Below the pieces are notes generated by a model. It was not told where the DNA came from and did not search any database. It saw only the letters and a list, made by a program, of their open reading frames with translations. A stretch of 64,000 nt of DNA from Marinicauda salina (GTDB lineage Bacteria; Pseudomonadota; Alphaproteobacteria; Caulobacterales; Maricaulaceae). The DNA lies in NCBI RefSeq assembly GCF_003122085.1, contig NZ_QEXV01000002.1, positions 1 through 64,000 on the forward strand, read 5' to 3'. A program made the translations under genes and the position numbers. How positions within the stretch are numbered: the stretch's first letter is position 1; each line of letters begins with the position of its first letter. Shown here one piece after another: positions 16,658 through 20,872 of this stretch.

Positions 16658-18613
16658 TCAGAGACCGGCGTCGCGACCCGGCGCGCCGTCGGCGACCGCG
16701 CGCGCCTCGGTTTCGCAGTCATAGGGCAGGTCGGGCTCGTCGCAGAAGTCCGGCCACTCGTCGGTTTCGAGCCAGTACTCGACCAGGCCGAACCGGCGCG
16801 CGAGCGGCCAGAAGCGCGGATCGCGGCGGAATTCGCGCATCTCGGGATAGAAGAACATGAGCGCGGTGTGGGGAAGGCCCCGTTCGGCCATCTCTTCAAC
16901 CACGGCGTACGCCTCGTCGATCGCGCCGACCGAGGCGAGTATGCGGGCGCGATAGTCGGGTTGCGTGTCAGCGCAGGCCTCGACGATGGCGTCGACGTCC
17001 GATCGGGCCTCTTCGCGCAGGCGTCCGGCCGCAATAAAACAATTGATCTCGCTGGTCGGGGGCGTGGTCCCGTCTCCGGGCGCGCCTGCGCGAAGGGCGG
17101 CCAGCGCGCGGTCCGCGTCGCCATAGAAGAGTTCTGAAATCACCTGATACCACACGGTCGCGCTAGGGGTCGGGTTCGCTGACGCCGCCCTCGCGAACTC
17201 GGCGCGCGCCGCAGACATGTCGCCGTTCATCGCCAGCATCAGCGCCAGCGTGGCGCGCGAGACGCTTCGGGAGGGGTGGATAGCGGACGCTTGGGCCAGC
17301 AATCGCCGCGCTTCGGCCAGGCGTCCCACTTCCCGAAGCAGCGCTGCGTATGCGGTGACGTAGATCGGCGGCGGCCAGCCGCGCGAGAAAACCTCGCTGA
17401 GAACCCGGTCGACCTCGATGCGGTATCGGTCGGTTGTTTGAGCATACGCAATCGCCAGCCGCGCCATTCCGTTGTCGGGATCGACCTCCAGCGCGCTGTG
17501 CGCGAGCTCGCGAGCCGCACGCAGGCTGGTTGTGCGGTCGGCGGGCGAGTGAATCTCGTAGCGGGCGTAATAGGCGAGCACGACCGCGTGCAGCGCGCGG
17601 GCGTGAGTATTGTCCGGATCGCTTTCCAGTATGCGGCGCGTGAAGGCGTGGATCGCGACGAACGCATCCTGATTGAACCCGGCCTCGCAAAGCTGCAGAT
17701 ACCACCGCAAGGTCTCGAGAGGCGGCGCTCCATGGGCGCGTCGAAATTCCAGACCGCAGGCGATCACCTCCGCGATCTTCGTCGCGAGCGGGGCGAGGGT
17801 GTCTCGGTCGGCGTCACGCGCGAGATCGCTGGCGAGAGTCCACAGCACGGCGCCGCTGGCTTGCTCGACCAGCTCCACCCGCGCCGCCATGCCCTCGGAT
17901 TCGGATTCCAGGACCGGCTGCAGCGCGAATTCCGGCGTCGGCCTGTTCGACGCTTCGTGTCCGGCGCGGACGAAATCCAGCGCCGCTTCGGCGAAACTGT
18001 CGGCGATCATCGCTTCGAGGCGGTCGGCCGTGTTCACCAGGGTCTCGTCCCGGCCAGGGGTGCGGACTGCGCCGAGCTCGATCCTGTCGATGATCGTGAC
18101 GCGCGCGTCGACGGCATCCTCGGAGCCCGGAGCTTCCAGATCGAGCCGCAGCGCTGCGACTGCAATCGCGACGCCTGCGGTCGCCGCGATTGCGGCCATG
18201 GCCGCGCGGCGCGCGAAGCGGGCCGGAGCTTGCATCGCCGGTGGCGGGGCGGGGGCCGCCGGCGGTCGCTCCGGGGCGTTCAGACTCTCGACCGGCGCCT
18301 TGAGCCGATAACCCCGCTTCGGAACCGTCTCGATGCAGCTCGCTTCGCCTAGAACGCGCAGGGCGGCGCGCAGGCGGGACACCGAGCGGGTCAGGCTCTC
18401 GTCGCCGCCGTGCTCGACCTTCCAGATCGCGTCGACGAGCGCCTCGCGGCTCCAGACCTCGCCGGGACGGGAGGCGAGAAGGCAGAGGACGTCCATCACG
18501 CGCGGCTGAACGTGCACCCCGTCGCGGCCGCGCTTAAGGAGGTCGCGGTCCGGCAGCACGTCGACATCGCCGATCCTGAAGCGAGTCCGGGGTATCTCGG
18601 GGGGCGCGGTCAT
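16658..18613 (-). CDS. CadC-like winged-helix membrane regulator with TPR sensor domain
   Basis: The 651-residue protein has an OmpR/CadC-type winged helix at residues 10-105 (recognition region [15 protein letters not shown], wing [11 protein letters not shown]). A proline/alanine linker and one transmembrane helix near 130-155 follow, then a periplasmic part of about 490 residues with TPR-like helices. It ends with [17 protein letters not shown], then a WPDFC and PYDC pair common in TPR-type one-component regulators. It should bind DNA directly and sense something outside the inner membrane. It is divergent from the UrcA gene at 18931, a likely target. Confidence 0.85.
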
Positions 18614-18830
18614 CGCTCAGCCTGCCTTGCGGACCTGTCGCGGCCGTCGTCGACAGCGTCGCGCTTAGGTTGATCCTAGCCCAATGCGGGCTTCGTCGCC
18701 ATCGGCGGCCGCGACGCGCACGCGGACTTGTGACGAACGCCTCCCGGCGGGCTGATGAAAAGCTCCCCTCAAGCGCTCCGTCATCGCCGATTGCCGGCGT
18801 TTCACGCGATTTGCTCGTGCGTTGAGTGGA

Positions 18831-18883
18831 TTCGCGAAAAGTCCGGAAACGAGGATCCCGGCGTCAGGACCCCGCTTCGCGAA
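18831..18883. promoter_or_regulatory. Two TTCGCGAA palindromes upstream of the first UrcA gene
   Basis: The 8-bp palindrome TTCGCGAA occurs at 18831-18838 and at 18876-18883, with starts 45 bp apart, inside the 317-bp divergent region between the TPR regulator (start 18613) and the UrcA gene (start 18931). Paired sites are what a dimerising winged-helix protein would use. The rest of this interval shows nothing I can identify. Confidence 0.35.
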
Positions 18884-18930
18884 GGCGCGATGCTCTGCTC
18901 GTCGTCAACGAACGAAGAAGGAGCAGAGCC

Positions 18931-19266
18931 ATGACCCGCAGAATCCTCCCCGTCCTCCCGTTCGCCGCCCTGGCGTTCGCTGTCGCTGCGCCGGCGCACG
19001 CCGAGGACCTCAGCTTCTCCTACCGCGCCTACGAACTCGAGAGCGAGGATGGACGCCAGGTCGTCCTGGAGCGCCTCGAACGCGAGGCGGCGCGGCACTG
19101 CGACTACGTCCCGGCCAAGCGCCCGCTCTGGGAGCTCCGGGCCGCCGTCGAGTGCCACGAGTCGATCATGACCGACGTCGTGAACCGGATCGGCGACGTG
19201 CGCCTGACCGCGCAGTTCGACGAGCGCGGCATCCGGCTCGCCGAAGCCGACCAGGCCGAGCGCTGA
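18931..19266 (+). CDS. UrcA-family exported protein, copy 1
   Basis: The 111-residue protein has a signal peptide (FAALAFAVAAPAHAE, cleavage near residue 24). The mature part shows a valine/leucine-rich strand, a helix (RQVVLERLEREAARHCDY) and a second cysteine in AVECHESIM, spaced as in the UrcA family, where the two cysteines probably form a disulfide. The ending DVRLTAQFDERG is also typical. UrcA proteins are periplasmic and of unknown function. GAAGAAGGAGCAGAG precedes the ATG. A strong terminator follows. It is the likely target of the divergent winged-helix regulator. Confidence 0.8.
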   Translation: MTRRILPVLPFAALAFAVAAPAHAEDLSFSYRAYELESEDGRQVVLERLEREAARHCDYVPAKRPLWELRAAVECHESIMTDVVNRIGDVRLTAQFDERGIRLAEADQAER

Positions 19267-19312
19267 GGCGCGCCTCCCCCCCTGGCTCCGCCCCCGCCGG
19301 AGCCTGCGCGCC

Positions 19313-19360
19313 GCCCGTCCCGTGAGGATCGCGTCAGCGATCCCCGGGGCGGGCCTTTTC
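19313..19360 (+). terminator. Rho-independent terminator after UrcA copy 1
   Basis: A long hairpin has outer arms GCCCGtCCCG and CGGGGCGGGC around the perfect inner inverted repeat GGATCGC-GTCA-GCGATCC. It is followed by CTTTTC. It lies 47 bp after the UrcA stop codon. Confidence 0.8.
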
Positions 19361-19414
19361 GCGTCGCGGGCGCGCATGCGCAGGCCTGCAATGGAGGGCA
19401 AGCGGCCACAAGGC

Positions 19415-19882
19415 TCAAAATCCGCCGATCAGCTTCACGGTCAGGACGCTTGTTATCGCGACCAGGGATATGGAAAGCGCAAAGATCGCGGCGGTCCGTC
19501 GGCTGTTTCCCCAGGGCAGATAAGCGCGCCATCCGGACGGAGGGCCGAGCGGGCCTTCCTCGGGGGTCGCCACTGTCGCGACCGCCGCGGTGAGCAGGTA
19601 GCCGCGTTTGGGAACGGTTTCGATGTAGCCGTCGCATCCGAGCTGCCGGAATGCGCGCCTGAGCATCGAGACCGTCCGCGTCAGACACTCGTCCGACGCA
19701 TAAGCGTCGCGCCAGACCAGGTTGAGCAGGGAGTCCCTGGAAATGACCTCGTTCGGCGCGTCGGCGAGGACGCAAAGGACCTCCATCACCTTCGGTTCCA
19801 GGTGCATCTGGTTCGAACCGCACTGCAGGACGTTGCGGTCGGGATGAACGAGCACGCAGCCGATTTTCAGGTGATGTCTCAT
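19415..19882 (-). CDS. Winged-helix membrane regulator without sensor domain
   Basis: The 155-residue protein carries a complete CadC/OmpR-type winged helix (5-98: ECLTRTVSMLRRAFRQLG, then [11 protein letters not shown]), closely similar to that of the 651-residue regulator at 16658. A linker and one transmembrane helix near 130-150 (IFALSISLVAITSVLTV) follow. It then ends after a few residues, so no periplasmic sensor is present. It may need a partner to sense, may respond to membrane state, or may be a truncated duplicate. It is divergent from the second UrcA gene. No frameshift is visible after the stop. Confidence 0.82.
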   Translation of the reverse strand: MRHHLKIGCVLVHPDRNVLQCGSNQMHLEPKVMEVLCVLADAPNEVISRDSLLNLVWRDAYASDECLTRTVSMLRRAFRQLGCDGYIETVPKRGYLLTAAVATVATPEEGPLGPPSGWRAYLPWGNSRRTAAIFALSISLVAITSVLTVKLIGGF

Positions 19883-20434
19883 CGATCCGAGAGGGCTTCA
19901 ATTCCCGAGCCGTCGACGCATCCGGAAGGGTTCATGGCGGTCGGCGGAAGCTGACGACATTAGCACAGCATCCTGAAAGGGCGCCTATGCGTGAAACCGC
20001 TGGCAAGGCGCTCGCCGGGGGTGGCGCGTCGGCGGTTACAGGTGTGATTTCCGGAGGCTCGCCGTTCCCGCAGGGCGCGGGCGGTCACTGCAAAATCAAT
20101 TATTCATCCACGATTGGATGAGCAGCGCGCGTTCGGGGCCTGGTCGCAAAGCCGACGACCGGGCGAAACCCGCCGCGCCTGCGTGTTTCGCACGCTGGAG
20201 CGCTCTGGCGGCGGTCTTTCAGGCGCGGTGGCGGATTCGGTCGGGAAAGCCGACGAAAACCTTCGCCAGTTTCCGCGCCCGATTAAAACCCGTTTCAAAT
20301 CAATTTTCTGGATGGCGATGTAAAACGCACTGAAACCGCATCTCTTCCTCAGGACGCGCCGGCGGGAATGCGCAAGATCGCGGGCTCGACCCGACGCTCC
20401 GACCGGGACCATGACGGAGCCGATGGAGAGTGAG
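19883..20434. other. 552-bp divergent intergenic region
   Basis: This long gap separates the sensor-less regulator from UrcA copy 2. It contains an AT-rich stretch at 20090-20104 followed by the small hairpin CATCCA-CGAT-TGGATG (20105-20120). A separated inverted pair GTTTCA (20292-20297) and TGAAAC (20331-20336) lies nearer the UrcA start. Short open frames in it look like noise: arginine-rich, with no ribosome site or recognisable family. A small RNA or a long regulated leader is possible but not shown. Confidence 0.4.
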
Positions 20435-20782
20435 ATGTTCTGGAAAAAGTTCCTGCTTGCATGTCCGGTTGCAGTGGTGAGCCTGACGTTTTCCGCGGTG
20501 CAAGCAGAAGACATCGTCGGCAAGGCGGCCGAAGTGGAAGTCGAAGTGATGGATGCGCGTGGGGCGACGCTGGCGCGGCTCCATCAGCGGGTGACCCGCT
20601 TCTGCGACCTCAACCAGGTCGCGGCGGGATTGACCGAACGCCGGGCCGCAGCGGCGTGCCGCGCGGATCTGATCAACGAGCTGACCGTCAAGCCAGGCGA
20701 TGTTCAGCTCATCGGCGGTGCGCCGCGATTTGTTCCTGCGGCCCGCACAACGATCGTCGCAGCGCTCAAGCCCGCGTCGTGA
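20435..20782 (+). CDS. UrcA-like exported protein, copy 2
   Basis: The 115-residue protein has a signal peptide (KKFLLACPVAVVSLTFSAVQAE). The mature part matches the UrcA layout: the helix RLHQRVTRFCDLN, a second cysteine in RRAAAACRADLINEL, and a final strand DVQLIG. It is diverged from copy 1 but keeps the cysteine spacing. GGAGAG precedes the ATG at 20435; an upstream ATG at 20411 is less likely. It stands head-to-head with the sensor-less winged-helix regulator. Function unknown; periplasmic. Confidence 0.7.
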   Translation: MFWKKFLLACPVAVVSLTFSAVQAEDIVGKAAEVEVEVMDARGATLARLHQRVTRFCDLNQVAAGLTERRAAAACRADLINELTVKPGDVQLIGGAPRFVPAARTTIVAALKPAS

Positions 20783-20845
20783 TGTGATGGTTCGCGTCGC
20801 CGGCTCGAAAGTCCCGCCGGTCGCCGAAGACCGCCGACTGTGAAA

Positions 20846-20872
20846 AAGGGGCGGCCGACCGGCCGCCCCTTC
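20846..20872. terminator. Bidirectional terminator between UrcA copy 2 and the M3 peptidase
   Basis: Arms AAGGGGCGGCC and GGCCGCCCCTT surround a short centre, with A-rich sequence before and TTCC after. It sits between two convergent genes and can serve both. Confidence 0.75.

What the first reader, a model, noticed from the sequence alone, without database searches (positions are those of the whole stretch)
16658..20872. Two tandem head-to-head modules of winged-helix membrane regulator and UrcA protein
A 651-residue winged-helix/TPR regulator is divergent from one UrcA protein. Immediately downstream a 155-residue regulator with a closely similar winged helix but no periplasmic sensor is divergent from a second UrcA-like protein. 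UrcA proteins have no known function. The repeated layout suggests duplication of a complete envelope-sensing module, in which periplasmic UrcA could be the effector or a signal partner of a membrane-bound DNA-binding protein. Function is inferred only from layout.
Basis: partly seen in the sequence, partly recalled or inferred. Interest (0 to 1): 0.7.

Follow-up and report, generated by a model that had tools for sequence, protein, structure and literature searches.

The report
Membrane regulators paired with UrcA genes
A bacterium carries pairs of back-to-back genes, a membrane-anchored DNA-binding protein and a small secreted protein called UrcA, and related pairs in other bacteria share a spaced DNA repeat between them, which suggests that the regulator switches UrcA on; one of the regulators has no sensing part at all.

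Summary
The layout is real: a 651-aa CadC-like regulator diverges from UrcA1, and a 155-aa regulator diverges from a second protein that the official UrcA model misses and a wider profile recovers only marginally. A third pair lies elsewhere in the genome; the three clearly CadC-like winged helices found there all face an UrcA-type gene. Pairs recur in several genera and families of the order: 12 of 36 fetched related winged helices in the family sample face an UrcA-like gene. Most UrcA genes are unlinked (5 of 80 family loci have an adjacent CadC-like gene). Linked gaps carry TCAG repeats phased at 11, 22 or 33 bp on the strand facing UrcA (10 of 22; shuffles 0.38), not seen before unlinked UrcA genes (2 of 129; 1.2) and seen again in a hold-out set (5 of 10; 0.18). 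This resembles a PhoB-type direct-repeat operator, so control of UrcA by the regulator is the best reading; the window's own two gaps hold only degraded versions. What UrcA does, and what is sensed, remain unknown.

The parts
16658..18613 (-). Regulator 1: 651-aa CadC/ToxR-like protein: N-terminal winged helix, one hydrophobic stretch, about 500 residues after it with TPR repeats, C-terminal PDFC-x8-C stretch
18302..18517 (-). Winged-helix (Trans_reg_C) domain of regulator 1
18614..18930 (.). Divergent intergenic region 1 (317 bp)
18842..18869 (+). TCCGGA (18842-18847) and TCAGGA (18864-18869) 22 bp apart: degraded version of the phased repeat; the pairing was read by eye and not tested; the tandem profile scores this region negative
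18931..19266 (+). UrcA1: 111 aa, signal-peptide-like N-terminus, two Cys; over the TIGR04433 cut-off
19415..19882 (-). Regulator 2: 155-aa winged helix with a hydrophobic stretch 6 residues before the stop, no periplasmic sensor
19883..20434 (.). Divergent intergenic region 2 (552 bp)
20336..20361 (+). Degenerate 11-bp direct repeat before UrcA2 (tandem profile score 11.6; the profile was trained on a set that includes this region); TCAGGA at 20349-20354
20435..20782 (+). UrcA2: 115 aa, signal-peptide-like N-terminus, two Cys; no NCBIfam hit; marginal in the wider profile (E 2.4e-4 with its own rows left out), 30% identical to UrcA1

Best explanation
Each pair is a small regulatory unit. The CadC/ToxR-like protein sits in the inner membrane with its winged helix in the cytoplasm, binds tandem 11-bp repeats (TCAG-type half-sites) in the shared intergenic region, and activates the divergent gene, which makes a small secreted two-cysteine protein of the UrcA superfamily. 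Regulator 1 can sense through its periplasmic TPR part. Regulator 2 has only winged helix plus anchor, so it probably acts through its level, through proteolysis, or by pairing with a sensor-bearing paralogue at similar operators. Shown by computation: recurrent gene pairing, the phased repeat on the strand facing UrcA, and paired sensorless members in three genomes. Inferred: DNA binding, activation, topology, secretion, any signal.
For: Recurrent pairing. Own genome: three regulators score 96-106 bits in a profile made only from 75 unlinked named regulators (two response-regulator-like ones: 34 and 41), and all three face an UrcA-type gene. Family sample: 12 of 36 distinct winged helices fetched from the 70 places (the window's two included), 9 of the 15 best-scoring, though that ranking uses a profile built from linked regulators. 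Order, picked by sensor similarity: 4 of 10 with a detectable winged helix. Named genomes: 6 of 83 regulator genes in 80 loci, two of the six already in the family sample. All 28 paired UrcA-like proteins reach E<1e-3 with their own and near-identical rows left out, 27 of them 4.5e-7 or better. Operator: TCAGGA in 17 of 23 linked gaps (shuffles about 2), 11 of 159 before unlinked UrcA genes (9.4 expected). TCAG pairs at 11/22/33 bp in 10 of 22 non-redundant linked gaps (shuffle mean 0.38, max 2), off-register lag sets 0-2; unlinked UrcA 2 of 129 (1.22); CadC-like genes without UrcA 12 of 91 (1.22); reverse strand 2, 0, 0. Hold-out: 5 of 10 (2 of 4 with UrcA, 3 of 6 without) against 0.18. Regulator and UrcA trees correlate (Mantel 0.317, 1 of 5000 permutations as high).
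Against: The window's own two gaps have no in-register TCA[GT] pair; gap 1 scores negative in the tandem profile, gap 2 holds a degenerate repeat. Only the third pair of this genome has an exact TCAG-N7-TCAG, and that pattern is not clearly enriched genome-wide (15 sites, control 11). The repeat also precedes CadC-like genes without UrcA, so it belongs to the regulator family and could serve autoregulation. Most UrcA genes are unlinked. UrcA2 is a marginal family member. One paired regulator (L213) stops 8 residues after the winged helix, without an anchor. No binding or expression data exist here.
Confidence: 0.66

Rival explanations
1. Co-component reading: secreted UrcA is a periplasmic partner or ligand of the regulator (as ToxS for ToxR or VtrC for VtrA) and feeds back on it.
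For: Small secreted-looking protein encoded beside a membrane winged-helix regulator; the trees of the two correlate; both UrcA1 and regulator 1 carry a cysteine pair. Known co-components have this logic (PMC9214523, passages).
Against: The ToxR/ToxS and VtrA/VtrC partners lie in one operon; here the genes are divergent. Regulator 2 and two other paired regulators have only 4-9 residues beyond the membrane helix. The regulator's Cys stretch also occurs in proteins with cyclase-like and TIR-like N-termini, so it is not UrcA-specific.
Confidence: 0.2
2. The repeat is an autoregulatory operator for the regulator's own gene; the UrcA neighbour is incidental.
For: The same phased repeat precedes CadC-like genes without UrcA (12 of 91; 3 of 6 hold-out).
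Against: The repeat reads on the strand facing the divergent gene: TCAGGA 17 forward against 3 reverse in 23 linked gaps, 22 against 4 in 102 unlinked. Divergent neighbours are UrcA-like in 12 of 36 fetched regulators, far above what a family of a few genes per genome would give.
Confidence: 0.15
3. Regulator 2 is a decaying truncated copy and UrcA2 a degenerate paralogue.
For: Regulator 2 lacks the sensor; UrcA2 has no hit to the family model and is the weakest paired member of the wider family; gap 2 is long (552 bp).
Against: The reading frame with its membrane helix is intact, and the same architecture with a divergent UrcA occurs in two further genomes on distant branches of the regulator tree (L197/L222 and L336). 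UrcA2 keeps the signal-like N-terminus and both cysteines.
Confidence: 0.14
4. The linkage is only shared descent of one ancestral locus, without functional coupling.
For: Co-inheritance fits the Mantel result; linked loci are concentrated in one order.
Against: Two different regulator subtypes (PKRGY and HGRGYRF wings) face UrcA; several unconnected modules occur in one genome; unlinked UrcA genes lack the operator signal.
Confidence: 0.08

Closest known systems
CadC/ToxR-like transmembrane transcription regulators (TTRs; PMC10269533, PMC5430869, PMC9214523, passages of each)
   Same: N-terminal winged helix, a membrane helix, in regulator 1 a large C-terminal part with TPR repeats like CadC's second periplasmic subdomain; DNA-binding domain of the type related to PhoB's
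   Different: Inferred operator is an 11-bp-phased TCAG direct repeat; CadC is modelled head-to-head on TTAxxxxT. Inferred target is a secreted UrcA protein. Some members have no sensor.
Co-component systems ToxR/ToxS, VtrA/VtrC, PsaE/PsaF (PMC9214523, passages)
   Same: Membrane winged-helix regulator with a neighbouring gene for a small envelope protein
   Different: Divergent genes, not an overlapping operon; the UrcA1 model is all-helical, not lipocalin-like, and matched no solved structure at E<=0.001
Caulobacter urcA (CC3302) under the UzcRS two-component system (PMC8963506, passages)
   Same: UrcA family, secreted, function unknown, transcription controlled by a specific regulator
   Different: There the regulator is a U/Zn/Cu-responsive two-component system with a CATTAC-N6-TTAA site; here a membrane one-component regulator is encoded next to the gene and no signal is known
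PhoB box (tandem recognition; Blanco 2002, seen only as a reference in PMC5430869; the 11-bp spacing is recalled)
   Same: Direct repeats with 11-bp spacing for a related winged helix
   Different: Half-site TCAG-type instead of the PhoB half-site

Membership tests
CadC/ToxR-like transmembrane regulators | N-terminal winged helix of the Trans_reg_C type | tested here: met
   55.9 and 54.8 bits over a cut-off of 26.2; the two best NCBIfam hits are the CadC and HilA/EilA models, far below their equivalog cut-offs
CadC/ToxR-like transmembrane regulators | Single membrane helix after the winged helix | tested here: met
   Hydropathy only: one stretch over 1.4 (19-residue mean) in each, peaks 2.2 and 2.3; no topology predictor was run
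CadC/ToxR-like transmembrane regulators | C-terminal periplasmic sensor | tested here: not met
   Met by regulator 1 (about 496 residues after the helix, TPR hits) but NOT by regulator 2 (6 residues)
UrcA family (TIGR04433) | Score over the family cut-off | tested here: not met
   UrcA1 meets it (47.3 against 25), UrcA2 does not (no hit at E<=1); UrcA2 joins only through a wider profile (2.4e-4 with its own rows left out) and 30% identity to UrcA1
UrcA family (TIGR04433) | Secreted small protein | not tested
   Signal-peptide-like N-termini seen in the sequences; no predictor run
UrcA family (TIGR04433) | Response to uranium, zinc or copper | not testable with these tools
   Reported for Caulobacter urcA (PMC8963506, passages)
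Co-component systems (ToxR/ToxS, VtrA/VtrC) | Partner gene downstream in the same operon | tested here: not met
   Divergent in the window and in the linked loci counted; same-strand arrangements with a winged helix seen only in L226 and L328
Co-component systems (ToxR/ToxS, VtrA/VtrC) | Partner with lipocalin-like fold | tested here: inconclusive
   UrcA1 model is helical (mean pLDDT 73, pTM 0.58), no structural match at E<=0.001
Co-component systems (ToxR/ToxS, VtrA/VtrC) | Periplasmic heterodimer with the regulator | not testable with these tools
   No complex prediction available

The most novel reading that the evidence does not exclude
CadC-like regulators of one large branch, found from Caulobacterales relatives to Acidobacteria, read a common operator code (11-bp-phased TCAG repeats on the strand facing the divergent gene), and secreted UrcA-superfamily proteins are recurrent clients of it. 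Sensorless winged-helix-plus-anchor regulators arose repeatedly in these units and act as sensor-free membrane tethers that tune or heterodimerise with the sensing paralogue, while UrcA feeds envelope state back.
Probability: 0.25. Interest if true: 0.72.

Novelty: new variant of a known kind. Interest (0 to 1): 0.52.

Why it matters
UrcA proteins are common in this order (186 of 249 genomes) and have no known function; a conserved regulator next door and a candidate operator give a direct handle on when they are made. The wider UrcA superfamily is larger than the official model shows. Sensorless membrane regulators raise the question of what anchoring to the membrane is for when there is nothing outside to sense. 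The operator, if confirmed, would allow the targets of many uncharacterised CadC-like regulators to be predicted.

Tried and rejected
Specific cysteine pairing between regulator and UrcA: the C-terminal PDFC-x-C stretch occurred in 6 of 16 linked and 0 of 72 unlinked full-length regulators, but an order-wide search found the same stretch in proteins whose N-terminus looks like a cyclase domain or a TIR domain, read by eye, and in winged-helix regulators without a detected UrcA (for example L372, L373, L376, L378, L384); the contrast reflects which taxa were sampled, so I dropped it as UrcA-specific.

RNA control: the UrcA1 leader has a 9-bp inverted repeat around its ribosome-binding site, but folding is not exceptional (z -1.35; +0.27 and -1.11 for the other two leaders).

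Genome-wide regulon: TCAG-N7-TCAGR gives 15 sites against 11 for the control; no regulon claim is made.

Fold of UrcA1: AlphaFold2 on ten sequences, pLDDT 73, 39 weak Foldseek matches, none at E<=0.001; no profile match to any PDB sequence at E<=10.

Other Trans_reg_C genes of the genome: of the eight others, the two with long open frames (L337, L338) score like response regulators; the remaining six (frames 229-310 aa) were not fetched.

Recent tandem duplication: rejected.

Checks made on the finished report: the E-value first given for UrcA2 (1.3e-9) came from a profile that contained it; without its own rows it is 2.4e-4, and a profile from the nine seed proteins alone does not list it at E<=10 (UrcA1: 0.027).

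Rows set aside and biases: near-duplicate or shorter versions of the same locus were left out of the operator set and the tree by hand list; L037 (UrcA 2.2 kb away) was left out of the operator set. The unlinked-regulator control excludes hand-listed linked loci. The family regulator sample is the 30 loci that fetched plus places that I chose, not a random draw. Eight of its 12 UrcA-like partners were themselves seeds of the wider profile, picked by eye; the leave-one-out test covers them. Five UrcA places of the family search were not fetched (80 of 85 that I listed; that list also left out places tandem to loci already fetched). Loci with 1.5-kb flanks can miss regulators that are not divergent. 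The TCAG word was chosen after seeing the linked set; the unlinked regulators and the hold-out are the independent tests. Relatedness is not removed from the shuffle comparisons beyond a k-mer filter (22 of 23 kept). The rough binomial is not used, because it rests on an estimate by eye and treats relatives as independent.
Full report
OBSERVATION. Both regulators and both UrcA-type ORFs are present at the stated places. Regulator 1 (16658-18613, -) has a Trans_reg_C winged helix and TPR hits; regulator 2 (19415-19882, -) has the winged helix alone. UrcA1 (18931-19266, +) passes the NCBI model TIGR04433; the second ORF (20435-20782, +) has no family hit but aligns with UrcA1 at 30% identity. 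The genome (2.89 Mb, 7 contigs) has four TIGR04433 places and eleven Trans_reg_C places. One of the latter, on contig C5, is a 707-aa CadC-like gene divergent from an UrcA gene. In a profile made only from 75 named regulators without UrcA, the three score 96-106 bits and two others checked 34 and 41; six more Trans_reg_C genes, with frames of 229-310 aa, were not fetched. All three high-scoring ones are divergent from an UrcA-type gene.

THE UrcA SUPERFAMILY IS WIDER THAN ITS MODEL. Listing small secreted-looking ORFs divergent from related regulators gave nine proteins, none of whose places is in the TIGR04433 list; a profile built from those nine found 88 ORFs in the first round and 216 in the third, merging with the loci fetched for UrcA. 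Those loci had largely been fetched for UrcA, so the counts are not a survey. With their own and near-identical rows left out, all 28 paired UrcA-like proteins reach E<1e-3 and 27 of them 4.5e-7 or better; the weakest is the window's UrcA2 (2.4e-4), so its membership is the least certain. Two cysteines are invariant in ten aligned members, UrcA1 and UrcA2 included; 7 of these 10 match TIGR04433 at E<=1.

LINKAGE. Forward: 80 UrcA places of the family, most with about 4 kb on each side, hold a related winged helix in 6 loci; all 6 are divergent and 5 adjacent (285-316 bp between domains; the sixth is 2232 bp away). Forty places from other families of the order hold five winged helices in four loci: three divergent (213-377 bp), one on the same strand, and one convergent that looks like a response regulator. 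Loci with only 1.5-kb flanks gave 0 of 30 (family), 1 of 23 (order) and 0 of 25 (class). So linkage is a minority trait of UrcA genes, but the position is nearly constant. Reverse: of the 70 places that one search lists in the family I fetched loci with 36 distinct winged helices (the window's two included); 12 face an UrcA-like gene within 700 bp, 9 of the 15 best-scoring, a ranking made with a profile built from linked regulators. Among the 80 best named loci (83 regulator genes; Proteobacteria, Acidobacteria and others) 6 do: Hyphomonas oceanitis, a Caulobacterales MAG, a Hyphomonadaceae MAG, a Ponticaulis MAG, a Pseudomonadales MAG and an uncultured Sphingomonadaceae; the second and third are loci of the family sample again (L221 = L200, L222 = L197). 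One more has UrcA downstream on the same strand. Order-wide, by similarity to regulator 1's C-terminal part, I fetched 20 stretches; 10 had a detectable winged helix and 4 of those face an UrcA-like gene. Two regulator subtypes, with PKRGY-type and HGRGYRF-type wings, are both involved.

OPERATOR. In 23 linked intergenic regions TCAGGA occurs in 17 (shuffles about 2) and TCAGGAC in 12 (about 0.2), towards the UrcA gene. Laid out, the units repeat every 11 bp, for example CATCATATTTC-CATCATAAAAA-AATCAGGCACT-TTTTAGGCGGC-CATCAGGACGG in L199. Counting loci with a TCAG pair at 11, 22 or 33 bp: 10 of 22 linked (shuffle mean 0.38, maximum 2), 2 of 129 unlinked UrcA upstream regions (1.22), 12 of 91 upstream regions of CadC-like genes without UrcA (1.22, maximum 5). 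Lag sets moved off register give 0-2 in the linked set; the reverse strand gives 2, 0 and 0. A hold-out set fetched afterwards gives 2 of 4 linked and 3 of 6 unlinked regulators against 0.09 and 0.09 expected; TCAGGA itself is not enriched there (1 of 4 and 0 of 6). A two-unit profile scores over 7 in 19 of 23 linked regions (its training set), 0 of 159 unlinked UrcA and 16 of 102 unlinked regulators. Direct repeats at 11 bp are the spacing known for PhoB (recalled), whose DNA-bound domain is the closest structural match of CadC's (PMC5430869, passages). The signal therefore belongs to the regulator family and lies on the strand of the divergent gene.

WHAT SPEAKS AGAINST IT IN THE WINDOW. Neither window gap contains an in-register TCA[GT] pair. 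Gap 2 has a degenerate repeat at 20336-20361 (score 11.6); gap 1 scores negative and shows, by eye, only TCCGGA and TCAGGA 22 bp apart (18842-18869). The third pair of the genome has an exact TCAG-N7-TCAG, though its tandem-profile score is also negative. The operator claim is strong for the group and weak for these two gaps.

SENSORLESS REGULATORS. Regulator 2 ends 6 residues after its hydrophobic stretch. The same build with a divergent UrcA-like gene occurs in a Hyphomonadaceae MAG (L197/L222, 4 residues) and in a genome of another family of the order (L336, 9 residues); a fourth case in Marinicaulis (L239, 3 residues) has no UrcA detected. The three paired ones lie on different branches of the regulator tree. 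In the Hyphomonadaceae MAG the short regulator lies between two UrcA-like genes, one divergent and one convergent, as in the window. The part after the membrane helix in the paired regulators runs from almost nothing through roughly 160-220 to about 550 residues, so winged helix, anchor and divergent UrcA are the usual constant parts; one exception, L213, stops 8 residues after the winged helix.

EVOLUTION. Distances in trees of 28 paired winged helices and UrcA-like domains correlate (Mantel rank correlation 0.317; 1 of 5000 permutations as high). The window's two regulators and the third of the genome form one group with L053; regulator 1 is nearest the third copy.

MECHANISM. Most likely the regulator activates the divergent UrcA gene from tandem repeats, as PhoB and CadC activate theirs; regulator 1 may take its signal in the periplasm. 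Regulator 2 cannot do so by a domain of its own. A model of UrcA1 is a helical protein of middling confidence without a structural match in the PDB at E<=0.001, so its action stays unknown.

LITERATURE. Full-text searches of the held library for UrcA phrases found one paper using the family name, a secretome list from Asaia (passages), and a review of uranium resistance that describes Caulobacter urcA as a periplasmic protein of unknown function controlled by UzcRS (passages). No paper linking UrcA to CadC-like regulators turned up in those searches or (listings; one search showed 25 of 969 papers holding the word); subscription papers are mostly not in the library. Co-component systems were read in passages (PMC9214523), as were the survey of transmembrane regulators (PMC10269533) and the CadC DNA-binding study (PMC5430869).

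VERDICT. Real, recurrent, testable; a new variant of the CadC/ToxR kind with a new client family and sensorless members. Control of UrcA by its neighbour is likely; function and signal are unknown.

Noticed in passing
18892-18929: Inverted repeat GCTCTGCTC/GAGCAGAGC encloses the ribosome-binding site of UrcA1; folding energy is not unusual against shuffles (z -1.35).
   Followed up: partly
L374, L379-L383, L385-L387: The C-terminal TPR part with the PDFC-x-C stretch of regulator 1 is also attached to N-termini that look, by eye, like adenylate/guanylate cyclase or TIR domains: a reused module.
   Followed up: partly
L389 (with L148), and L159: In two genomes of another genus an UrcA gene lies near a gene with a regulator-1-like C-terminus on the same strand; no winged helix was detected in the stretches held.
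   Followed up: no
L149, L151, L153, L144: Single open frames with two UrcA-like domain matches in tandem.
   Followed up: no
L336:3405-5277: Sensorless winged-helix gene, UrcA-like gene and a convergent response-regulator gene that resembles CtrA (by eye) lie together.
   Followed up: no
L239:910-1449: Sensorless winged-helix regulator in a Marinicaulis MAG with a strong phased repeat upstream but no UrcA detected beside it; only about 0.9 kb upstream is held.
   Followed up: partly
L253, L220, L219, L215: The phased repeat also precedes CadC-like genes without UrcA, including one from Acidobacteriaceae: a possible general operator of this regulator branch.
   Followed up: partly
L198:5405-6198: Two UrcA-like genes in tandem, both divergent from one regulator of 474-aa frame.
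   Followed up: no
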